From the NCBI GenBank assembly GCA_020881915.1, contig JAJFPB010000002.1:310001-374000 (forward strand): 64,000 nucleotides of DNA, in the 5' to 3' direction. Positions 47,825 through 61,617 of the stretch are shown piece after piece; within the stretch, counting starts at the first letter, position 1; every line of letters begins with the position of its first letter. This DNA is from Paramyrothecium sp. XJ0827 (lineage: Eukaryota; Ascomycota; Sordariomycetes; Hypocreales; Stachybotryaceae). The notes beneath the pieces were generated by a model. That model searched no databases. It saw only the letters and a list, made by a program, of their open reading frames with translations, and was not told where the DNA came from. A program made the position numbers and the translations under genes.

Positions 47825-50128
47825 TTAGACATTTAACTCTGTACCCTCAGACAAAATCTGGCTTCTGACAGCATCGAGGGCGTCCAAAGCCTGAAGATGC
47901 CAACTAAACTCATTGACGCTGACACGGAATCTCTCCATATTTCTTTTCCCAGTGGCAATAATATCTTCCACGTTGTAGGGCAAAATATCCTTGAAAATTA
48001 GAAACATCGTGGCCACTTGCAGGATGACAATATAGGTGAATGTTCTGTGGTTACAAAATCGTTAGTCTCGTTGTTTCCACTGCCTACAGAAAATTTGGTT
48101 CACAAAAACTCACGCCATCCCCGTTGCAAAGAGACAGGTAATGCTGTCTACAATTTCGATGTCGAAGATTGATATGAAGTTCTTGCAGGCTTCCAACGAT
48201 AATTTGCACTTCTCCAGGATAATAGCCTTGCGCGGGTGTTCCATGATATGTTCGTGGTTCAGAAGTACGTAGTCGATGAACGGTCTATAGATGATATGTT
48301 GGGTGGCGTAATAACGGCCTCGAAGCCGAACGACATTCCATGGCTCATTGTGCAATTCGCCAGATTCTAGAGGTCTAGAAGGATGCAACTCTGGAGTTCC
48401 CGGAGACTCGACGTAGCTATCGCCTGCTGAGCGGCTGCTGAAGAGGAAGTTTGGAACATTGCGGTAAATATCGGCGTGGTAAGACCAGAGATCATCTGAG
48501 ACGCGCAACAACCAGTCGACGTATTCGATACGTGTCATGCGGAAGTGATCCTTGCTGTCGTATATCATGCCGTGTACTCGATTGAGTAACCGACGGATTG
48601 CAGCATTGGTGCTGATCTGAAACGAGCGAAGAGCCACATCAGAGTCATCCTGGCTCAGCAGATGATGGACATCATTTCCGCTATGATTCAAGGATTTGGA
48701 TTGCGATGGGTACGGTATTTCGTCCTCGAAGCGAGCGATACCCGAAGGCATTGCTATTGGAAACTCCGAGGCGAAGTCGCCTTCGCAGATAAAAGAAATC
48801 CAGTACACTCGGCGAAAAGCGTCCGTCGTGGACTCTGGAAGCCGCGACCCAACCAAGGCTCTAACAACGGGGTCACCAGGATAAAATCTTCACGTCAAAC
48901 AGGTAAGAAACAGCTCGTCTACTCACCTCTGAGCCAGTTCCGCACATTTGACAGAAGTAGCATGGGACCAGTGGAAAGACTCGCACACGCGTCCACGTGC
49001 ACCGCAGTATATACTAGAATATTGCATCCAATGTTGTCAATTTCGTACAGCTTCCGAAGAGCATCAACAAGAACGGAGGGATGACAGTTACCTGGCTAAC
49101 ATGGTGCACTGGGCAGCCTCAACTGTAGGTGCCGTGGCGACGAAACCAAGCAGTGACTGTGCTTTGTGCCACATCTGTCTCTCAAGAATGGCCAAGTTCG
49201 GTCCGTTCGCATACGACATTTGATTATCCCCTTCATCAGGCTTGAGACGGATGTCCGAACGACCTTGTCGCACAAAGGCACCAATACAAAGAACCATAGA
49301 CAGAACACAGGATTCGGACGGGTTGACATTAGCGGATACTGAGGCAGTCCCAAACTCATCAATGGAAAATGCGCGTTCAAGGATCACGATTACCTCTCGA
49401 AACGATAGCAACGGGTAGAAGGCATTCACCCGCTGGAAGTAGGTTCGAACCAACGATTTCGACTCGGTGATTGCATCGAAACCGTGCCACAACATATCGT
49501 CTCCCAGGGTCGTCCATTTAGTACCGAGTAGTTCATCTAGACCTGTGCCTAACTCATCATCGTGGGGCGTTGAACCAAAAAACACGTCGGTTGCGCCTTT
49601 GAGTTGCCCATCGTGCCGTAGAAGCTCCGCTGGTATGGAGTAGCCGAGTCTCATGCTCATGGTTGATGTCAATAGCTCCTGTACTATGGGCCATTTGAAG
49701 ACATGATTTGCGTTAGCAGTGTGGGAGGTTGGGATTGGGATTTCCTGAGCCGAGGTCTCGAGCTGCACAGCATCTCTCCAGAGGCCAGGAGTAGTATCCC
49801 GTACATGTGATCTCGCTCTGGAGTGCAACAAAGCTGGAGAGGCCGGGTCAATATCGTGACGATTGGCGGTGGTCTGCTGCGCGACCACTGACAACAGAAG
49901 GCGATCTTCGAGAAGCTGCATCCGATCGAGCAAGAGCTTCGTATTGTGCTCTACCCGCGGTTCGGAGGAGTCTGAGTAGACGCAGTCCACCTTTTGTGCG
50001 AAGCAGAGGCCACATTTTGGTTTTCCGCCATCGCATTTCGTCTTCCGTGAGCGACAATTTGTGCACGCATGCCATACGCGTCGGCGCGATTGAGGAACAT
50101 CTTTCATAGCTGACGATGATGGATCCAT
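47825..50128 (-). CDS. Zn2Cys6 transcription factor (cluster regulator 2, four exons)
   Basis: Exons on the minus strand: 50128-49092, 49013-48927, 48860-48114 and 48044-47825; introns 78, 66 and 69 bp; 696 residues. The zinc cluster ACTNCRSRKTKCDGGKPKC-GLC-x6-C begins near residue 21 and is followed by a leucine-containing segment (LLLDRMQLLEDRLLLSV) likely to dimerise. The fungal-specific middle homology region spans ~215-480 (FYPLLSFREV, LARS across junction 1, RRVYWISFICEGDF, SEFPIAMPSGI). A nuclear DNA-binding regulator is predicted. It forms the right border of the glycosidase block and could control it or the adjacent genes; its target cannot be told from sequence. Confidence 0.88.
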
Positions 50129-51014
50129 GGCTCTTTATGGTGTAGTCACAGAGACTGTCCTCGTCGCAAGACCTTAGAGCGTAGTCAACGGCATGGGATG
50201 TTTTAGTAGGGAAGATCGTCTGCTTTGTTTTTGGTGCTTTGCATGAAACCTAAGACGAGCAAGGGAAACGAAACGCCATACAACCATGGCGGGGGAGACT
50301 AACTTAAAATCGAAAAGCCCCCAAAGAGCCATACGCCGGCGGGTGTGGTGGAGCTCGTGCTGGAATTGAAGTTGGGGGTTCATCGACTAGTGTGTCCTCT
50401 CCCGTCTATCAAACTGATTGTCGTGGCCGTCCAGTTCTTGGCCCCCATATCAAAGGAGTATTTCCCTTCATCGATCTGTATTGAGAGCCGAAAAATCTCT
50501 ACAGGCATGTTTTCGGATGAAATCCATTGCCAAGGCGAGGCAATGGTAGTAGGTTGTGTGGGGAATGTGATATGAGAAGGGGAACACCAGGAAGATGACA
50601 AGAGGCTCCCATCTTTGAAGCAGGCACAGTTCACGATTTCATAGCATCTGTATTGAGACCATGTCCGTTTTCTAGACGTACTAAAATTGCGAGCAGAACA
50701 CCAATACATAAAAATCCTACGGATGCCGGATATGGCTTGAACAGCTATAGGGTAGCTCAAGCAAGATGATTTTCCTGTCCTCCATCAAAATGTTACCGTC
50801 CATGTGGCTTAGACACGAAATCAAGTCTCAGGAAACTATTTTGCCATGAATCGAGTTATCGATTTTATTCCCAAATTTATCTCTAGGTGTGTTCACCGTA
50901 GAATAGTACATGGTCTTCAATCTGTAGACTAAATAAGTTCGCCTTCTACATCGCATGAGTTCATGAGAATTGTTCTAGCAGCCTTTCCGTGACACAAAAC
51001 ATTTACCATCTACA
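50129..51014. other. Intergenic region with one doubtful 109-codon frame
   Basis: About 890 bases. On the minus strand 50709-50380 is an open frame (MYWCSARNFSTSRKR...) whose second half, with SSWCSPSHITFP and IFRLSIQIDEGKYSFDMG, reads like real protein sequence, yet no family, partner exon or signal was recognised. It could be a relic or an exon of an unresolved gene. Confidence 0.35.
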
Positions 51015-54000
51015 TCAGTTTCTTCCAAAAGCGTGTTGCATGTACCCTTTGGCACTAACTGCCGTCCTGTAGAGCACCATTGTTAAGACACTGCTATGGG
51101 CCATGTGCATCCACCATCGGGAGAACTTGAGAATGGCGGTTGCTCTAGGCATAGCGACGGCATCATAAGCCGCGACAGCGCGATCCAGCGAATTCTCCAT
51201 GCAAAGATGTTGTGCTAGGTCTGCGCCCTCGATCATGGCTAGACTCGCCCCATAACCCGCGAAAGGTGCCACTGCGTGATCACTATCGCCAATGTAAACG
51301 ACAGATCCGCTCTGCTTCCTCTGTCGCGAGGGAGTTCTGTCCCTTATAAAATGGGAAAACTCCGTATCGGGCTTGGTCAGCTCAATGATGCTCTTGAGTG
51401 GCTCTTCATACATATGCCAAAGCTTCTCTTTTTCCCGCCGGGCTAGGTCAGACTCGGACTCGTCAGTTCCATCCAATGGCTCATCAGTGTTGCGGCTGGT
51501 TATCATCCATGCCACATGGGTATCGTTGACAGGAGAGAAAAAACAACAGACGCCCGGGCTGAAGAGCTGTAAGCCCCATTTATCGGAGATAGGCTGCGGC
51601 ACTCCTTGTGCAAACCTAGCAGTTCCGCCCAGTTGAAAGAGCCCTGTTGATTGCAGGGTATCCTGTGGTCGAAGACTCGCTCTGATCTGACTGGAGGTTC
51701 CATCTGCCGCGATCAAAAGGTCGCATACCACGTTAATGTCCATATTGTTGCCTATGAGTGTGACCTCAATCCGTCCATCGTGTAGTTTTTGGGCGTGAGT
51801 ACAGTTCACGCCCCATCGAATTTCGTCCGTTTTCTTGACTGCGTCAATCAACGCTGTGCGGAGTTTGCCTCGGGTGATGCGGCCTTTTGCCTTGGGAAAG
51901 TTTGCTGGCGGCGCAAAACGACTACTCGTTAACTCAACCCATTTGGTGTTCCAAATCTTGAAGCATTCGTCTCTTCCGATCTCAACACTATCGAGGAGGC
52001 CCACAGACTCAAGCGCGGTCAGAGCGTTCATACCATCATAGCCATACAATGGGACAGGATAGTCTTGATTGCGGTGTGTATGATCGTCGAGATTGCGGTC
52101 ATATATGCTGATCCGCAGCGGCCTGCGATCCGGAGTCCATCGCTTTCTGAGCGCAGCCACAAACGAGAGGCCAGCCAAGCCTGCCCCTACAACCACAATA
52201 CTCTTTCCCTCTAGCCAATGTGTCGGCACTGGCACGTTCAAGATAGTATTGGCTTGTAGCTCACTGAACACGTTCTTGATAACACTGGCCGCAGTACGGG
52301 TCCCTGTCGGGAGTATGGTGGTCAAGGGGTCCGCGCCCCGTCTGATGAGCAGTTCTATAGCTGAGAATATTATCTCATCGGCTGCGAGTCTAGGGTTGTT
52401 GCTTATTATCGTGATAAAATCTCTCCATAGTGTCGAGTTCCCCATCCAACGGTTAGGATCCGCGTTATTGTCGAGGAGGAATCCCAACGCATCCAAGTGG
52501 ATGGTTAAATGGTGAACTTCTCTTGCCTCTACCGCGTTCAAGCCCTGGATGTCCAAAGCATAGTACAGAGGAGCGATGTCACCAGGAAGAATTGGCGCCC
52601 TCAGCTCTTCTGGGCGTTTGCTTCGTAGAAAGCTATGCACGTTAGACCGACAAGCCAGCCCTAGCAGAGCATTGCCATGCCAATCCCCTTCGTACAGAGA
52701 ATACAAGTTCGAATGCGCTTTTTCGGCATATTGAAGCATATCAACCAGTAAATCTTTGTTAGCCATGTTCTTCTCCGCTTCTTGGGCGAAAACGAAGAGG
52801 TTTTTGCAAAGGTTTCTCAACTCCTCGGGCTTCTGTGACGATGGAGCACGCAGAATTGCCCCCAGCGTTGTGGCACAGGGCACGAGCCATCCTTTTTCGT
52901 TGAAGCCCTCAAATCGGTATTTTTCTATCATCTTAGTGACGTGAGGCGTGTCAAAAAGAAAATCTCTGACGGTTCTGTGAAGGTAGTCTACTTTGTAGGC
53001 AAAGTACGGATGGGTATTGGGCTCATCAAAGTCGATTTCCAGAAGGCCTTTACATCTCTCATCGAGACTTTTCTGCATGGAACGCCGCCTGTGGTCAAAC
53101 TCGTCTTGGAAGATGGGCTGCATATGCATCCTCCTGTAGTCTGTTAAGTGTGCTTCTGATGTAATGTCGTCCAGTAGCGAATACACCGTCAACAGTTGAG
53201 CCTCCTGAACAGAGGTTGCGATCCAGAACATCCGAGCGGTCCACGGGAGATGTCTCTCGTCGATGGAATCAAGCATATGCTGGAAAAAGTGAGTGAGATC
53301 CCGAGGAAAGCTTTCTACTCGGGCTTTCAGGCTTGGTGGTTTTTCCCCATTGATGAACCCTTTGCCTAGGCTGCGGACAACGAGAATCACCCAAAGAAAC
53401 ACACCTTTAGCGCGTTCAACTACTTCGTTTGCGACTTCAGAATATGGCTCGAAATTTTTGATGTCCATCATCTTTCTGAACTTTTCAAATTCGGCCTTGA
53501 CATAGTTTGATATATCACCTCTCGTCAAATCCTCTAGTTTGAGCTGCGAGTCGAGGTTCTTCCCAAATGTCTGGAGAAACATGGTCCAAGGTCGGCTGGA
53601 AACGCAAATCTTGATATTCTTGGAAGTGCATAGGGTCTGCAACGTAAGAATAAGCTCGACCTGGTTCTCGCCACTCTCTTCAGTTTCTTCAAGCTCATCT
53701 AGCCCATCAATGAAGAAGCAGAATTTGGCGGCAACTTGACCGTTACCACCGTGGAGAATAGACCGGACCGCAGTATCCAGAGTCTTTCGAGGCCACCGGG
53801 TTTCTTCTGGCCCATCGTTTTGGGGCAGGCCACCAATGGCATCTGATACGTGTCGTGTTAGGTCCGGCGAAGCCCGTAGTATTTCATAAAGAAGAGTACG
53901 CAACAGGCCGACTACGGACTTTTGCAACTTGTTCCCGGCGTTCCAGAAGAAGTATTTAGCAACAACGAGTTTTTCGCCGCCCGCCCATTTGTGGAGTAAG

Positions 54001-55333
54001 ACCATTGTTCGTGGTTCTTCGTAGATAAACTTCATCAAAGTCGATTTTCCTGACCCAGCTTTTCCTTGTACCAGGAATGTTCCAGCTCCTTTGCTGAGCC
54101 AACTGGCGAACTGGGTCTGGTTGGCTGATTGAGCAGGAGTCTTGTTTCTGAATATCCAGGCCAAGGTCGACATATGAGCCTCCTCAATCCCGCGATGTCT
54201 TGCTTCGATCTTGCTGAAATGAAGGCTCTCTAAAAATGACAGATTAAATTTCATGATACATACTTTTTGTTCCAGGCGCTCCAGCATCAACAAAAATTCC
54301 TGTGATTCTTCTCGGGAAAGTCCAAAATTGATAGGGATGGCGTCGAGCTTCTCCAGCACTCTTCCAAGCACTCTCTGCATGCTTGATGATATCCTGGATG
54401 CTGCATTGGTTACTTTGTCGAGTTTAACTTCCATTGCCTTGGTGTGCTCCCAAAGTTTGCCATGGTCAGCCATATTGTACCGTTTTGCGGTGTCCTCTAG
54501 TCTGTCGATGGCACCAGATTGAGACAATATGTGATTTCTAATGCAGTTAGTGGGTGAGCAAATTTCCTTCTTGATTAGCTGTGAGTGTAGTTCAAATTGG
54601 ACAAATTAACTTATGAACATTGCGTCTCCAAGATTGGAGAACCTCCCCTCAGACATGACCGACTCCAGTATGTAGCGAAGAAGAGTCAATTAGAGAAATG
54701 ATAGACTTACTGGAGACTATCTACAACTCTGCGAGAAACTCGAAATTGAACCGTAGCAAGCTTTTCGACGTTTTCTTTTAGTCGATCTCGCCCCCACACA
54801 TTAATTAAAGCGACGATGAGGCTGTCCCATCGAAGCACAATAGGTTCCCAATGAATCGATTCCTTCACATTGGAGACAGTCTCTTCGCGAAGGCTTTGCA
54901 TCTGATGAAGACTCCCCTGTTCAATCTCAGCCAGGATCTCTTCCAAGGCGACCAGCAGCTGTGCAGCGATGTTTCTGCAATCAATCACCGGATCCCAGAG
55001 ATCTTGGAGACCCAAGAATTGGCTGTTGGTTTCTGCGTCGTCCAGTGTCCGGTCCAGCATTTCTATGGTACTAATGATTCCATCCAATGTCGCATTTCCC
55101 TTTGTCACGTAAGAAGCAGACGCCAGGATCCGATCCTTGCTGGTCCAAAGTGACCAGATTGACTCAACAAATTGTCCGATGATGCTTGATATTTCCAAAG
55201 CACCATGACAGACTTTGAAGGAGTCATGATTTCGAGGTTGACCATGAGGAAAGAAATTGTAGATGTTGTTGCCTTGGTGTAAAGTTCCTTGTTTGTTGAT
55301 TGTGTGGGAATAGACATTCCCTGTTGGCCTCAT
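51015..55333 (-). CDS. STAND receptor: HRAM-like motif + NACHT + FAD monooxygenase fusion
   Basis: Predicted NOD-like receptor of 1381 residues. Exons on the minus strand: 55333-54711 and 54537-51015, with one intron (54538-54710, GTAAGT donor, CTAAC branch, TTAG acceptor). The ATG at 55333 starts MRPTGNVYS and puts TLHQGNNIYNF at residues 17-27, a motif like the HET-s-related amyloid motif at the N-terminus of NWD2-type receptors. A helical fungal STAND N-domain follows (~40-205). The NACHT NTPase has Walker A GKAGSGKST (366-374) and Walker B FFIDGLDELEE (482-492). Ankyrin-like pieces LLDNNADPN and LLIRRGADP come before a complete flavin monooxygenase (~985-1381): VVVGAGLAGL, IAADGTSSQIR and YIGDSDHAVAPFAGYGASLAMIEGADLA. 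No ATG lies near the FAD domain, so a true fusion is favoured. Confidence 0.85.
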
Positions 55334-55896
55334 CGCTTCTGCCGTGGACGTCACCTTCTGGCAACGAAGACAAGCCTGTAGAGTTCTCTCAAACCCCCTG
55401 CTCCCCAAAAAGTCCCTTAGTATCAAGTTCTGTATGAATTAAATCGATGTGGCTTCACTGTGGTAAACGGACTAGATGTTGAACTTGACATACAGATGGC
55501 TGAGTAACCAGAACTGCGCACCAGCCCCTTATTATATGTCGATGCACCACGTATTAGAAGGACCTGGTCATAATGGCGCCTGGTAGCTCCGCCACCCTGG
55601 AGGGCTTATTGGGAATTTCTCAGCCTCAGCTGACCAGGCTCTCTTCAACAGCCTCAGCAGCGCCTTGGACACAACCTCCTGTACAGCACGAGTTCCAGAA
55701 CCGAGGATCCAGGGGTTATTGCCGCAAAGCAAAACACAGCATTTCTCCCTCCCGATTGGCTTCGCAATCGCGACCAAGAGGCTCTATGGACTTTCCCCCA
55801 CGGCATTCTAGGCAGCTGTTTCGCACTAATCTCGACCTTGAGTATGACAGAGAATGCGTTGGGCTGTGATATGCGACTTGGAGAAGGATGGCACGC
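55334..55896. other. Region between divergent STAND gene and HeLo-like pseudogene
   Basis: About 560 bases. The STAND coding frame stays open from 55429 to 55333 after a possible acceptor, so an extra 5' exon cannot be excluded. On the plus strand about 55596-55820 there is a ~75-codon protein-like stretch (QALFNSLSSALDTTS and RLYGLSPTAF) ending in TAG, with no start, probably a decayed gene fragment. Confidence 0.4.
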
Positions 55897-56752
55897 ATGG
55901 CGGCGGCCACCATGCAATACTTTGAATACTTTCAGCTTGGACGGAATTTCGGGAAAGATTTTGGAAAATGCCAGCCTCGTTTGGGCTGACTCAAGCTGCA
56001 TCTCACCAGACTAGGCATTGTTCTTGGGATGCTTCCAAATCCTCAGACGAGGCATTTACGTGAATTCTCAGTTAGCTCAGAGGATGCCACTCAAGCAGAA
56101 CGGCTTGTCGGATCGGTTCTCTGAAATTTGGCTGAGATTGAGCAAAAGTCGAAAAATACGCTGGCGCGAAGCAGTCGGCCACGACTGGTGACGTTCTCGA
56201 GGTTTACGATATCACTCAGCTGGAGCAACGTCAAAAACATCGCTGCAGAAGACGAGCGAAATCGTTGCCAGATGGCTGAAACAGACATCGTGGACGAAAA
56301 AGACAAAGTGGGCATTGTACGAGAAACGTCACTTCGATTCTTTCTTGGCCGATGTCCCGGAGATACTGGGCATGCTAGAACCGCTGTTCCTCAGTGTTTT
56401 ATGAGCTCGAAGATCACTGCGTGCCCATGAGTTCTAAGAATTGCAAGAAGACCTGAGAAAGATTCCTCCGCTACAACTACTATATGATGCAAGCGTGGAG
56501 AACAAAGACACCCTCCTTACTCAAGCCCTTCAAGATGAGATTGTTGCCAATGGGAGCGGGCACCGATCTGAAAGAACAGAGATTGATGAGGATTCAACGA
56601 TTCAACAGGGGAACTTCATAGCACTGGGGTTTCATGACCAGGCACCATTTGGCAGAAGCAGTCACAGTTACGGTACCACTATCATTAAAGGCCAGTCGAA
56701 ACTAAGTCAAGATGATACGTATGGCTATCATACCACTAATGGGGGGTTTTAG
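55897..56752 (+). pseudogene. HET-S/HeLo-domain-like gene with C-terminal HRAM pair, inactivated
   Basis: The plus strand encodes recognisable HET-S-type blocks. The early HeLo block (QYFEYFQLGRNFGKDF, from 55915) is followed by the late HeLo block (KKTKWALYEKRHFDSFLADV, about 56294-56353) and a C-terminal open frame (56438-56752). That end contains STIQQGNF and, 33 residues later, a second motif before a GF terminus, the layout of the HET-s prion-forming domain. It is broken by TGA at 55987, TGA at 56122, at least one frame change between 56125 and 56252, TGA at 56402 and TAA at 56435; the extreme N-terminus of HeLo is missing. In working relatives the HeLo domain is a membrane-disrupting cell-death effector triggered by amyloid templating from a neighbouring STAND receptor. 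Here it is almost certainly non-functional. Confidence 0.8.
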
Positions 56753-57171
56753 CTTCATATACTTTGCAAGGAATATCTTGCTATCTGATGGCAGAGAGCA
56801 GGCTAAGCTGAGTTATTGTTGAAGCCAAGGTTTTCCAAGACTTTCATACATCGTTGCAGCTCGATCAAGTGTGGGCTTTTGTAGCATGACGCTTAAGTGT
56901 ATGCCGGTTAAGCCTTTAAAGCCTGAAACAATCACAATCTGCGCACCCACTTGGGAGAAGGTATGATTAAAACTTGGAGGTCATAAATTCACATAATCAT
57001 GTTTCTAGAAGAAGCTAAGAACACGAATAACAATAGAATTGTTGTATAGAAACACGACAATAAACAGTCAACGGAAACGATCAGACACATAAGAACATAT
57101 CAATCGATGGAAAGACAATACAAAGGAACTGCGTCTGGGACCACCAACTAAGGCTGCATGGCAGACCATGT
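56753..57171. other. Intergenic region
   Basis: About 420 bases between the pseudogene end and the stop of the ubiquitin-like gene, convergent orientation. Nothing coding seen. Confidence 0.45.
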
Positions 57172-58072
57172 TCACTTGTAAATATTGCCCTGATGCAGAC
57201 TTCCACCCTCGCAAGTAGTTTCCCCATACTGATGATTGCCTCCGCCTACAGGAGCCGGTCTCTGGAAGCTTGAGTAAATGTCGTTTCCCTGCCGGTGGGT
57301 CGTGTCATAGGTTATGGTATGGATATACCTATTCCCAATATGCGTTGGTCCTTCCGTGCCGGGTCTATGATTGCTCTGGTAATCCTCGCCCTGGTGACCA
57401 TCGTGCTGTGGACCTCTCAATCCGTCAACAGCTTGCTGTTCGAGGCGAACGGGTGGACCGTCGTGAAATTGATCTCTCTGCTCATCGTGGCCCGGAGAGA
57501 CAGTAGCACGATAATGATCTCCCTAGTGGAGAGCACCACGTGTGCTCTCGGTAGTCTCAAAAGTATGTTGTCCCATGCCTCGGGGGCCTTGGCCACGAAA
57601 TCCTGTATTTTGGTCACCCTGATGAATGTCCGTGCCGTGGGTAATGGTTTTCAAGAATCTGTGCCCTGGGGTTCTTTCAGGGACGGCGCCTTGGCTAATC
57701 AAAGCCTTGTCCTTCAGGATCAGAGTACTATTACCCTCCAGCACAGAACCGAGAAGCTTTTGATTGTCATTGAATTGCTTTAGGTTAGAGCGTGGCAGAA
57801 CCAGGCATTGGCGTTGCACAGGAATGCCAGTTTTCTCTTCAATCTTCTCTTTCAAGATCGCGACAGTTGAAATAGAGTCGAGAAATAGAGGTTCGAGCGA
57901 GCCTTGGTCTGCCATTTTACGTCAGTATCAAACGTTTCTGTTGAAGATAAGCGCAATGCAGTAAGATCGACGAACCTGTCTTCACACGAACAGTAATGCG
58001 AGTGATAGTAGCCGTCTCGCTACCTCTTGGGGCACCCTGGGCGCCTAATGTCCCACTGAGTGTTTCTGACAT
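57172..58072 (-). CDS. Ubiquitin-like domain protein with about three HRAM-like motif pairs (one in-frame TAG)
   Basis: Exon 1 is 58072-57976, intron 57909-57975 (GTTCGT donor, GGCAG acceptor), exon 2 57908-57172. The join gives TRITVRVKT-DQGSLEPLFLD, a ubiquitin-like fold (~24-101) with the usual order: STVAILKEKIEEKTGIP helix, QRQCLVLPRS, LILKDK. After it come Gly/Gln/His-rich repeats: IHQGDQ, LH-stop-GDHY, DGHQGEDY, THIGNRY, THRQGND and SLHQGNIYK, forming about three motif pairs with 32-33-residue spacing in the clearest two. A TAG at 57525-57523 falls exactly where the other repeats have Gln, so the product is either 160 residues or, if read through, 277. The stop may be a point inactivation. 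It neighbours the STAND and HeLo-like genes and shares their motif, suggesting an amyloid-signalling partner. Confidence 0.72.
57523..57525 (-). other. In-frame TAG inside the repeat region
   Basis: The only stop between 57908 and the terminal stop at 57172. In the aligned repeats the position is Gln (HQG), and CAG to TAG is the kind of change caused by repeat-induced point mutation or simple deamination. No intron of acceptable length removes it. Confidence 0.7.
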
Positions 58073-58574: not shown

Positions 58575-58715
58575 GGCATTGTAGAGTAGGGGAGCTCTAC
58601 CCACTTCTCTACCCTACCCAGGTAGAGGAGTGGTCTCCTCTACCCTACCCAGGTAGAATGGGTAGAGTAGTGGGTAGAGTAGTGGGTAGAGTAGTGGGTA
58701 GATTGGTGGATAGAC
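58575..58715. repeat. Minisatellite / hairpin region of GGGTAGAGTAGT units
   Basis: A 12-base unit GGGTAGAGTAGT is repeated about four times from 58660, preceded by the inverse form (CTCTACC, CTACCC) at 58590-58635, so the region can fold on itself. It lies just beyond the hAT coding end and may be its subterminal repeat array. Confidence 0.7.
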
Positions 58716-58781
58716 TATAAGGTAGGTAGGGAAGGCAGATGCTGTATATATGCTCAATTCTCCGTAATAAGCCACCTTGTA

Positions 58782-60350
58782 TTATACATCCCAACCCTCT
58801 TCATCGAAATCAATATTCATTTCATCATCCATCTCCACAGCCTCTACCATCATCGCTAGCTGCTCCTCCGAAGAGATGAGCTTCCTCGCGAACCAGTTGC
58901 CCATGCACTCTAACCTCTGGAGGTTCTCTGGCGATAACCTAAGCCTGTCCCAGCTCTGCGTACGGCGTGCGCCCGAGAATTGTTGTTCTGGTTCAGCGGA
59001 GGAGGGTGCGATTGAGAGAATATTGATGGCCATACGGTGGAGACGAGGATAGCGCCGGCGCTGCTCTGGAACTAACCACCACTGAAGAGGAGTTATCTTT
59101 AGAGCATCAAGATCGATAGTTTTATCTTCAATAAACGCCGTAAACGTATCTTCATCCTCTTGCGAAGTAGATTGAACTCTTAGACGACGTTTCAGCCGGT
59201 CTAATTCATTCTCTATCCTCTTCTTCGAGGATGGATGAGACGTATCGATATCAGCAGCAGCAGCAGGGAGTGATTCATGAGGGAGATGCGCGTATTGCTT
59301 CTGCCAGATCGAATAAGCAGCATCAATAGTCTTCTGATGCCACTCTTCAGGCCAGTTCTGAAGAAGATAATGCTTCCGCTTCGAGGGATCGAGAAGCATC
59401 GCGGCGGCGTATACTGGCGTTGACTCAACGAGGGCGTAGTATTTATCAAGGATAAACCAGCCCATCTCAATAGAATGAACCATGCGGAGGTCCTTCTCTG
59501 GGCCTGATTTACCGGTATATAGCACCTATAAAACATCAGCTTTAAGCATTGTCTTGATGAAATAGGATAAACCTTCTGATCCTCAAAGAAGGTGAGGATA
59601 GCATCCATCAGTGTAAGGCTCTGGGATAATGAAGCCTCACTGCCTTCAACCCATAGCGTACCACTAGCAAATACAGAGAGAAACCTCTCCGTACGCTTAA
59701 GTGTATCCCACTCAACACCATTGAGTCGAAAGTTATCGCATTCAAGGTGTTTATCAATGAAGTCCTTAATCTCTCGCTCCTTGCGTGTCGTACGCTTGAT
59801 GAGATGATAGCATGAGGACCATCGAGTGTCGTTATCAATCCCTAATGTAATGCCGACAGCCTCTATCCATCGGTCATGATGGATAGAGCTGTTTCGAAGC
59901 CATACAGCTAGGGTATGAAGCTTCTGGAGCGCAGTAGTAGCACCCCAGCCTTCGAAACCTTTATGCTTCGCTTTAACTTTACCCCCTCTTCTCTGGGCTT
60001 GTTCATGAGCTCTTATTGAGGCCGGATTATCCTCAACGACCGGTACATCAAGGTAGGCCGAGAATAGCTTGTAAGGGTCGGTGTCTTCCGTCTCTTCAAT
60101 AGCCGCCAGAGCAGCTTTGAGTGCTTCTTTTGAGGTGGCAAGGAGAAAGGCTTGAAGGGCAAGGTTAAGAATATGATCAAGGCAGCGGATGCGGTGCGTA
60201 ACTGGATCATAATCAATCTGTTCGATATAAGTAAATACTCATGTAAAAGCTAGTGTATACAAACCCCAAATGCAAGTTTTAGAGACCGGGAGAGCCCTAT
60301 GAGTAGAGTATCATTTGAAGTGGCGTTATCTCCAGTGTGATAGCCGAGTT
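58782..60350 (-). pseudogene. hAT-family transposase, 5'-truncated
   Basis: Reading on the minus strand from about 60350: GYHTGDNATSND, then THRIRCLDHILNLALQAFLL (after an intron near 60220), GFEGWGATTALQKLHTL, DNDTRWSSCYHLIKR, and after another small intron near 59530 the block MLLDPSKRKHY and the C-terminal dimerisation domain LQWWLVPEQRRRYPRLHRMA with SIAPSSAEPEQQFSGARR. The order and motifs are those of fungal hAT transposases. The N-terminal BED-type zinc finger and the first part of the catalytic core are missing where copia sequence begins, so the protein cannot be functional. Confidence 0.85.
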
Positions 60351-61617
60351 TCGTTGTTACCCCGAAGGATTTAAGGGTGGGGATGATAATCTTCGTCAAA
60401 GACAAAACCTACATTGCCGTTTACGTGGACGACTTGCTCATCGCAGGCCCATCAAAGGGGACATCGAAATGATTAAACAAAGCCTCAACAAGCGGTTCAG
60501 CATGACAGACCTTGGGCCCTGCCATGTCTACCTAGGCATGTCTATTACTCGAAACCGCAGACAGCGGATACTGAGCCTGTCGCAAGAGGGGTACATTGAG
60601 AAAGTCCTGGAGGAATTCGGACTACGGGACTCCAAACCGACTGCGACCCCAGTGGCAACAGCGAAGCTAGAACCCGCGCTTGACGATGACGAAACCAACA
60701 CGGATCGCAAGCACTGGTACGCCAAAGCAATCGGGTGTCTGATGTACGCAATGCTGGGCACCAGACCAGACATTGCATTCGGCGTCTCGCTCTGCAGCCG
60801 TTATCTCGCTAAACCTACTAAGACTCACGAAGCCGCGGTGAAACGCATCATGAGGTACCTACGAGGAACCTGCGATTTCAAGCTCAAGTTCCAAGGAGAC
60901 CTTCGCCCATTGACGGGATATACGGACTCTGACTGGGCCGGAGACACCGAGACTCGACGGTCCACTGCCGGGTATATCTTCAATATCGGCAGCGGTGCAA
61001 TCAGCTGGGCTGCAAAGCGGCAGCAGTCGGTGGCCCTGTCTACTTGCGAGGCCGAATACATGGGGCAGACTCAGGCAACTAAGGAGGCCATTTGGCTGCG
61101 GACCTTACTACAAGAACTCTTGAGAGGCGTAGATGCCACAAACCAATTAGCTGCTACAATCATCTACGGCGATAATCAGGGTGCCATAGCGATGGCTAAG
61201 AACCCCAGTACCACTCCCGTACGAAGCACATTGCAATTCAAGAGCATTTTGTGCGAGAAAAGACGGCCAGCGGAGAGGTTGAGATGAAATATATCCCGAC
61301 CGACAAACAAGTGGCTGATGGACTCACAAAAGCACTCCCCAAGGATCGTTTTCAGGTGTTCCGGAAGGCCCTGGGAGTTGTCGGACCGGATGAGTAAAGC
61401 TATTCGGGCCAGAAAGAGGATCCACGCTACGAGGCTTTGCGGTTTCTGAAACACATTCAACACGTGTTACCCTGAGCCACTGCGCGAGGATCCAGTGGGA
61501 GTCTACTACCCCGATTACCATGTACAATGGCAGCTCGTCCAACTCACCTCAACAACCGCTAGAAGGTCAGTAAGTGACCCGGCCGCACTGGTTGCAATTC
61601 CCGACCAGACCAAGAAG

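What the first reader, a model, noticed from the sequence alone, without database searches (positions are those of the whole stretch)
51015..58072. Three neighbouring genes share a QGN amyloid-like motif: receptor, HeLo-like effector and ubiquitin-like protein
Seen: the STAND protein has TLHQGNNIYNF at its N-terminus, the HET-S-like pseudogene has STIQQGNF in its C-terminus, and the ubiquitin-like protein ends in SLHQGNIYK with several further copies. Known: in Podospora the nwd2 STAND receptor and het-S effector are adjacent and signal by HRAM amyloid templating between such motifs. Inference: this is a related locus expanded by a third, ubiquitin-like partner carrying several motif pairs, which could scaffold, buffer or report the amyloid signal.
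Basis: partly seen in the sequence, partly recalled or inferred. Interest (0 to 1): 0.92.

Follow-up and report, generated by a model that had tools for sequence, protein, structure and literature searches.

The report
Amyloid-motif receptor cluster with ubiquitin-like protein
Three neighbouring genes in a Fusarium-like fungus share a short amyloid-type signalling motif, as in a known fungal cell-death circuit, but here the death gene is broken and the motif is repeated in an unexpected ubiquitin-like protein, itself interrupted by a stop.

Summary
Observation confirmed, with corrections. Three adjacent genes in a 51.8 Mb fungal assembly: an intact 1381-aa NLR receptor, a HeLo (HET-S-type) pseudogene and a ubiquitin-like (UBL) gene. 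The shared motif has glutamine before the invariant HRAM glycine, as published for HRAM4. Intact HeLo homologues from metagenomes carry two copies 34 residues apart; the UBL tail carries two such pairs (spacing 32 and 33), the receptor one N-terminal copy. NLR-UBL and UBL-window HeLo similarities each beat all 5000 shuffles; direct NLR-HeLo similarity does not stand alone. Genome-wide, the few other matches scored lie in this locus.

Caveats: the Pfam HET-s prion profile does not hit here (it hits a canonical pair on contig C7); the HeLo gene has four in-frame stops and a frame change; the UBL frame has a TAG inside motif copy b; whether the triad exists elsewhere could not be tested. The receptor also ends in a FAD-monooxygenase-type domain, shared with three Fusarium proteins.

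Best reading: a partly decayed HRAM amyloid-signalling cluster whose novelty is a ubiquitin-like motif client. New variant of a known kind.

The parts
51015..55333 (-). NLR/STAND receptor gene, 1381 aa: exon 1 55333-54711, intron 54710-54538, exon 2 54537-51015
   Evidence: splice model (GTAAGT donor, CACTAAC branch, TAG acceptor); domains; homologues P0001, P0003, P0004
55250..55321 (-). NLR N-terminal motif copy (r0): GNVYSHTINKQGTLHQGNNIYNFF
53592..54122 (-). NACHT-type NTPase (PF24883 NPHP3_N E=2.5e-22; PF05729 NACHT E=1.1e-6), Walker A GKAGSGKST
   Evidence: coordinates by arithmetic from its residue range
51123..52193 (-). C-terminal FAD-dependent monooxygenase-type domain (PF01494 E=1.7e-9, preceded by a Rossmann-type GAGLAGLS stretch)
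   Evidence: same fusion in P0001, P0003, P0004; coordinates by arithmetic
55912..56752 (+). HeLo (HET-S-type) pseudogene: pieces 55912-56154 and 56246-56725 in different frames, two in-frame stops in each, N-terminal 24 residues of the homologue not recognised
   Evidence: PF14479 E=2.4e-6 and 2.3e-4; tblastn with P0121, 62% and 59% identity
56567..56632 (+). HeLo motif copy r1 (SERTEIDEDSTIQQGNFIALGF)
56663..56725 (+). HeLo motif copy r2 (HSYGTTIIKGQSKLSQDDTYG), lacks the motif's invariant Gly
57172..58072 (-). UBL gene: exon 1 58072-57976, intron 57975-57909, exon 2 from 57908; 160 codons, then a TAG at 57525-57523, then 116 further open codons to 57175
57718..57997 (-). Ubiquitin-like domain (PF00240 E=1.1e-7), split by the intron, no C-terminal diglycine
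   Evidence: coordinates by arithmetic
57598..57663 (-). UBL motif copy a
57511..57570 (-). UBL motif copy b, contains the TAG stop (57523-57525)
57265..57336 (-). UBL motif copy c (GNRYIHTITYDTTHRQGNDIYSSF), closest to the NLR copy
57175..57240 (-). UBL motif copy d, at the very C-terminus of the frame

Best explanation
This is a HET-s-related amyloid-signalling cluster (HRAM type, glutamine at position 18) with three motif-bearing proteins. Shown by sequence: an intact NLR with one N-terminal motif, a degenerate HeLo executioner with a C-terminal pair, and a ubiquitin-like protein with two C-terminal pairs, broken by a stop in the second copy. Inferred mechanism: when its ligand makes the NLR oligomerise, its N-terminal motifs stack into a beta-solenoid amyloid nucleus that templates the motif pairs of its clients. 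The HeLo protein was the membrane-permeabilising client, as in NWD2/HET-S, and has been lost in this genome. The UBL protein was (or, with copy a alone, may still be) a second client, so that templating would string ubiquitin-like domains along the amyloid as a recruitment or clearance platform, or compete with HeLo for the seed. The tight NLR-UBL motif match fits the UBL protein having been the receptor's closer partner.
For: Motif sharing. Intact HeLo homologues P0121/P0122 have two repeats that align gap-free from the H to the D of HxYxxT...QGD, Gly-to-Gly distance 34, loop of about 13 aa (published range 6-18 in 154 of 155 sequences, PMC4518210), opposite charges at position 11 in P0121 (D and K, by eye). 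UBL pairs repeat this geometry: copies a-b 96 nt = 32 aa apart, c-d 99 nt = 33 aa. The NLR copy has no D or E, in line with the lower charge reported for r0 motifs (PMC4518210), and lies at residues 5-28. Gene order: NLR and HeLo head to head, UBL next. The Fusarium albosuccineum homologue P0001 has GNTHVGDSYTHH at the corresponding place. A canonical HET-s-type NLR/HeLo pair on C7 shows that the genome has this kind of system. Triads of NLR plus two motif-sharing proteins are published for the sigma and PP motifs (PMC3321046, PMC5485727, passages).
Against: No amyloid was measured. PF11558 does not hit. NLR against HeLo is not significant pairwise. A profile of intact HeLo copies alone gives UBL copy d just 4.9 bits, below two chance pieces (5.6 and 5.3) and a reversed piece (5.3), and misses the NLR. 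With the NLR profile a reversed piece reached 11.8 bits, above the second UBL copy (8.4) though below the first (19.6). The UBL gene has a premature stop and the HeLo gene is dead, so the circuit may not work. The part of the UBL tail before the stop matches the NLR only weakly (102 of 5000 shuffles as high). The reading as HRAM4 rests on the Q18 rule in the text of PMC4518210, not on a comparison with HRAM4 sequences. No second UBL-HRAM protein was found. A loose [QVIL]G[ND] scan of the first 120 residues hit 13 of 122 fetched proteins; by eye only P0001 looks like an NLR r0.
Confidence: 0.55

Rival explanations
1. Relic: the whole signalling cluster is decaying. HeLo died first, the UBL gene has now acquired a stop, and the intact NLR remains through its other (FAD, ankyrin-like) functions or has simply not yet decayed.
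For: Four in-frame stops plus a frame change in HeLo; TAG in the UBL frame with no plausible intron removing it; transposon fragments next to the locus.
Against: NLR open over 1381 codons with motifs kept; the UBL frame has only one lesion and 116 open codons after it (about 0.4% expected at random, simple arithmetic with 3 stops in 64 codons); the Thr, Gln and Gly of the motif are kept in copies c and d.
Confidence: 0.3
2. The UBL protein is a dominant regulator (decoy or sponge) rather than an output: its several motif pairs soak up the amyloid seed and protect the cell from HeLo; once HeLo is lost, selection on it relaxes.
For: Two motif pairs on a protein without a known killing domain; loss of HeLo and a stop in the UBL gene in the same genome.
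Against: No direct evidence either way; it requires that HeLo was driven by this pathway, and the direct NLR-HeLo motif similarity is not significant.
Confidence: 0.1
3. The QGN resemblance is compositional coincidence between G/H/Q/N-rich tails, and the UBL protein is unrelated.
For: Direct NLR-HeLo similarity is within the shuffles; a reversed-sequence control reached 11.8 bits with the NLR profile; the HeLo-only profile does not single out the UBL or NLR.
Against: Composition-preserving shuffles never reached the NLR-UBL or UBL-window HeLo scores (0 of 5000 each), 2 of 5000 for UBL-P0121; pair spacing conserved; the few genome-wide hits scored all lie in this locus.
Confidence: 0.05

Closest known systems
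NWD2/HET-S of Podospora anserina and HRAM NLR/HeLo pairs (PMC4518210 parts 1-3 read; PMC4344463 search listing only)
   Same: NLR with one N-terminal motif beside a HeLo gene with a C-terminal motif pair; position-19 glycine, loop length and charge pattern fit
   Different: motif has Q18 rather than a hydrophobic residue; HeLo gene is a pseudogene; third motif-bearing UBL gene; receptor ends in a FAD monooxygenase-type domain, NWD2 in WD repeats
HRAM4 subfamily (PMC4518210; Pestalotiopsis fici named as example in a legend of PMC5485727)
   Same: Q at position 18 is the published HRAM4 signature
HET-eN/SESA/SESB (sigma) and PP triads (PMC3321046, PMC5485727, passages)
   Same: three genes, one NLR and two proteins sharing its motif
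   Different: motif family differs (HRAM rather than sigma or PP); second client is ubiquitin-like rather than a lipase/esterase
Ubiquitin-clan (Crinkler) domains at fungal NLR N-termini (PMC9815663 section 10)
   Same: a ubiquitin-clan domain in the fungal NLR setting
   Different: there it is part of the NLR; here it is a separate protein with amyloid-type motifs and matches PF00240

Membership tests
HRAM amyloid signalling motif | two imperfect repeats at the C-terminus of a HeLo-type protein, loop 6-18 aa | tested here: met
   P0121/P0122: repeats with G259 and G293, loop about 13 aa; also in the window pseudogene
HRAM amyloid signalling motif | invariant Gly at position 19 | tested here: met
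   present in NLR r0, UBL a-d, window HeLo r1, P0121/P0122 r1 and r2; not in the window pseudogene r2
HRAM amyloid signalling motif | hydrophobic residues at 5, 8, 10, 16, 18 | tested here: inconclusive
   5 is Y/F in all copies but window HeLo r1, 10 is V/I in the HeLo copies, but 8 is T, 16 varies (L, I, A, H) and 18 is Q; Q18 is reported for HRAM4
HRAM amyloid signalling motif | preference for K or R at position 15 | tested here: not met
   K15 only in the second HeLo repeats; F in P0121/P0122 r1; the NLR and UBL copies have a gap there; a stated preference, not an invariant feature
HRAM amyloid signalling motif | match to Pfam HET-s prion domain PF11558 | tested here: not met
   no hit in the window at E<=10; only 38 of 155 such proteins match it, so it is not a necessary feature
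HRAM amyloid signalling motif | single copy at the N-terminus of an adjacent NLR | tested here: met
   copy at residues 5-28 of the NLR, gene head to head with HeLo; NLR-UBL similarity significant, NLR-HeLo not
HRAM amyloid signalling motif | beta-solenoid amyloid that propagates as a prion | not testable with these tools
   AlphaFold2 models had mean pLDDT 41.6 and 36.6 and were not used
HeLo domain (PF14479) | profile score over the curated cut-off | tested here: met
   32.1 and 25.8 bits, cut-off 23.2; homologues 119.9 and 109 bits
HeLo domain (PF14479) | intact reading frame with the N-terminal helix | tested here: not met
   four in-frame stops, a frame change and no recognisable N-terminal 24 residues
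Ubiquitin-like family (PF00240) | profile score over the curated cut-off | tested here: met
   32.0 bits, cut-off 25.4; exon 2 part alone 26.5 bits
Conjugatable ubiquitin-like modifiers | C-terminal diglycine after the domain | tested here: not met
   domain ends STLILKDKALISQG
Fungal NLR (STAND, NACHT) | NACHT NTPase with intact Walker A | tested here: met
   PF24883 and PF05729, GKAGSGKST

The most novel reading that the evidence does not exclude
The ubiquitin-like protein is a genuine amyloid-templated client of the receptor that took over as its main partner as the pore-forming HeLo protein decayed, wiring an NLR amyloid signal to ubiquitin-type machinery instead of membrane lysis; the stop is a strain-level polymorphism or a recent lesion.
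Probability: 0.25. Interest if true: 0.82.

Novelty: new variant of a known kind. Interest (0 to 1): 0.6.

Why it matters
The passages read here name pore-forming (HeLo kind), lipase/esterase (sesB), NAD and nucleoside-phosphorylase effectors for fungal amyloid signalling. A ubiquitin-like protein with two HRAM-type pairs would add a non-lytic branch and suggests how amyloid signals might be cleared, scaffolded or rerouted. Loss of the killer while receptor and motif remain would be a natural snapshot of partner turnover. The receptor with a monooxygenase-type C-terminus is a second unusual architecture, shared with Fusarium decemcellulare and F. albosuccineum proteins.

Tried and rejected
Pfam HET-s prion profile: no hit in the window. 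Solved structures by sequence: neither HET-s nor HELLF was listed at E<=10 for UBL tail, HeLo tail or NLR N-terminus (best unrelated hits E=0.2 and 0.78, none for the NLR). HeLo-only motif profile against the window: recovers HeLo, UBL copy d only at chance level (4.9 bits), NLR not at all. UBL protein against 5.8 billion proteins: 463 candidates, none at E<=1. UBL in viral contigs: none. One 18-base spelling of QGNIYN in the own genome: no exact match. Intron explanation of the UBL stop: within 200 nt of it 26 GT-AG combinations keep the frame, none with a CTRAY branch site or a GTRAGT-type donor. The fragment after the stop has no Met, so it is not a separate ATG gene (by eye). FAD family in the own genome: 18 of 132 candidates scored at E<=1e-5, not informative on NLR fusions. 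Structure models of the UBL exon 2 frame and of P0121 were poor and no fold search was made. Paper searches that held ubiquitin or ubiquitin-like beside HRAM, HeLo, amyloid or NLR terms; only (exact phrase with ubiquitin) found no paper at all. In main texts searched for 'ubiquitin': PMC9815663 has 2 places (the Crinkler section), PMC12258605 one (a reference title), and PMC12261475, PMC12881547, PMC5485727, PMC7889193, PMC7885112 and PMC3321046 none. PMC4518210 was read in parts 1-3 of 5. No supplement was readable.
Full report
WHAT IS THERE. The window is positions 310001-374000 of contig C8 in a 51.8 Mb, 15-contig assembly; that it is a Fusarium-like fungus is inferred from the best NLR relatives. 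Between a Zn(2)Cys(6) regulator frame (49088-50134) and transposon fragments (hAT dimerisation domain 58782-59525, RVT_2 60319-61287) lie three genes. (1) A STAND/NLR receptor on the minus strand. An intron with a GTAAGT donor, CACTAAC branch point and TAG acceptor joins exon 1 (55333-54711) to exon 2 (54537-51015) into 1381 codons. Pfam finds NPHP3_N (2.5e-22), NACHT (1.1e-6), DUF7791 (1.7e-13) and FAD_binding_3 (1.7e-9). Its first exon has no other match in the genome at E<=1 (1 candidate scored). (2) A HeLo pseudogene on the plus strand: PF14479 at 2.4e-6 and 2.3e-4 in two frames, four in-frame stops, and no recognisable N-terminal 24 residues by comparison with an intact homologue. (3) A ubiquitin-like gene on the minus strand (exons 58072-57976 and from 57908), ubiquitin family 1.1e-7, with a TAG after 160 codons and 116 further open codons.

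THE MOTIF. The shared element can be written [HN]x[YF]xxT-x(7,8)-[HRKQ]QG[ND]. This pattern, made after seeing the copies and allowing a stop at one place, finds in the six frames of the window only the NLR copy and the four UBL copies, one of which contains the stop, and nothing in 200 shuffles. It misses both window HeLo copies. Less biased tests follow. A profile of UBL copies a, c and d scores the NLR N-terminus at 23.1 bits (domain E 7.8e-6 in 2545 window ORF pieces); the next non-self piece has 9.3, the HeLo tail 8.2 (below that chance piece), and the best reversed piece 6.9. The NLR copy alone scores UBL copy c at 19.6 and d at 8.4 bits, the next piece 5.8, but one reversed piece reached 11.8. 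UBL plus intact HeLo copies score the NLR at 17.8 (next 6.8, best reversed 6.2); NLR plus intact HeLo copies score the UBL only at 8.8 and 7.6 (next piece 4.9, best reversed 4.6). A profile of intact HeLo copies alone finds the window HeLo (33.9 and 20.6 bits) but gives the UBL 4.9, below two chance pieces, and does not find the NLR. With composition-preserving shuffles, the NLR-UBL, UBL-window HeLo and UBL ab-cd scores were reached by 0 of 5000 each, UBL-P0121 by 2 of 5000, the part of the UBL tail before the stop by 102 of 5000 against the NLR and 9 of 5000 against P0121, NLR-window HeLo by 366 of 5000 and NLR-P0121 by 1474 of 5000. So the UBL tail is the bridge: similar to both, while NLR and HeLo are not demonstrably similar to each other. 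Genome-wide, NLR residues 1-37 find only UBL copy c besides themselves (E=0.18); UBL pair cd finds only UBL pair ab, aligned through the TAG (E=0.006), and the HeLo tail (E=0.0075); the whole 116-aa tail after the stop finds the HeLo tail (E=0.05) and the upstream pair (E=0.28). The tool scored 2, 3 and 3 candidates, so more distant copies may have been passed over.

IS IT HRAM? The strongest evidence comes from two intact HeLo proteins of 302 aa, P0121 and P0122, 59 and 55% identical to the searched part of the pseudogene and clear HeLo proteins. Their tails hold two repeats, aligned without gap from H3 to D20, with Y/F5, T8, V/I10, Q18, G19 and a loop of about 13 residues. PMC4518210 (parts 1-3 of 5 read) defines HRAMs by a conserved G19, hydrophobic residues in general at 5, 8, 10, 16 and 18, loops of 6-18 residues and charge complementarity between repeats, and states that HRAM4 has Q at 18. 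The D/K pair at position 11 of P0121 fits; the reported preference for K or R at 15 is met only in the second HeLo repeats. The spacing of the two glycines is 34 in HeLo, 32 (96 nt) in UBL pair ab and 33 (99 nt) in pair cd. The Pfam HET-s prion profile does not hit the window, while it does hit a canonical NLR/HeLo pair on C7 (E=1.2e-17 for HeLo, 1.83 for the NLR). The same paper says that 38 of 155 double-repeat proteins match that profile.

THE UBIQUITIN-LIKE PROTEIN. Its N-terminal domain aligns with the ubiquitin encoded on C13 of the same genome over 68 columns; there is no diglycine, and the places of ubiquitin's L8 and I44 read D and V, that of V70, one residue past the alignment, K (the role of that patch is recalled knowledge). 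It is thus more likely a binding domain than a modifier. The tail carries two motif pairs. Because the stop lies in copy b, the predicted product in this assembly keeps the UBL domain and copy a. No branch-site-bearing intron removes the stop. The search of 5.8 billion proteins gave no relative at E<=1.

THE RECEPTOR. Of the 120 listed of 715 NLR relatives, three carry the FAD domain, all from Fusarium albosuccineum or F. decemcellulare, 32-34% identical over 70-97% of the query. P0001 has GNTHVGDSYTHH just before the homologous helical region, an r0-like element with V in place of Q; P0003 and P0004 have, by eye, degraded versions. A loose scan for [QVIL]G[ND] in the first 120 residues hit 13 of the 122 proteins fetched; by eye only the P0001 one resembles r0, and some of the others, such as P0002, may lack their N-terminus. 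This suggests, but does not prove, that the motif is old in this receptor and has changed class. [quoted passage not shown] the only match to 'FAD' in its main text seems to be an author's name. Its supplementary table was not read.

HOW IT WOULD WORK. Shown: anatomy, motif sharing, lesions. From knowledge of the family: ligand-driven NLR activation converts its N-terminal motifs to a beta-solenoid that templates the client (PMC4344463, abstract start in the listing; PMC4518210). Inferred: the UBL protein is a second client; templating gathers UBL domains. The close NLR-UBL match, against none demonstrable between NLR and HeLo, agrees with the concerted evolution of motifs in working partners that PMC4518210 reports, and so with the UBL protein having been the closer partner. 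Against this stands the stop codon. Relic status is the main rival (0.3).

NOVELTY. An NLR with two motif-sharing proteins is published for the sigma and PP motifs (PMC3321046, PMC5485727, passages). A ubiquitin-clan domain is published at fungal NLR N-termini (PMC9815663 section 10). In the papers and searches named in Tried and rejected I did not see a ubiquitin-like protein with HRAM motifs. The literature held is open-access only.

Noticed in passing
51123-52193: The NLR ends in a FAD-dependent monooxygenase-type domain; the fusion is shared by P0001, P0003 and P0004 (Fusarium albosuccineum, F. decemcellulare). Possible integrated decoy or enzymatic output.
   Followed up: partly
L001 (contig C7:1803243-1806818): A canonical het-S/NLR pair in the same genome: open 356-codon HeLo frame with PF11558 tail (E=1.2e-17) and a divergent NLR with VQVGNTYIYND near its N-terminus.
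   Followed up: partly
P0004 (1902 aa, Fusarium decemcellulare; not in the window): This NLR-FAD homologue has a long N-terminal extension with a stretch TNMGDSFAQN before the NLR part, perhaps a fused effector or a gene-prediction fusion; Pfam named no extra domain there.
   Followed up: partly
58782-61287: Transposon fragments beside the cluster: hAT dimerisation domain (minus strand) and RVT_2 reverse transcriptase (plus strand).
   Followed up: partly
58590-58720: Short tandem repeats of GGGTAGAGTAGT type near the hAT fragment, seen by eye.
   Followed up: no
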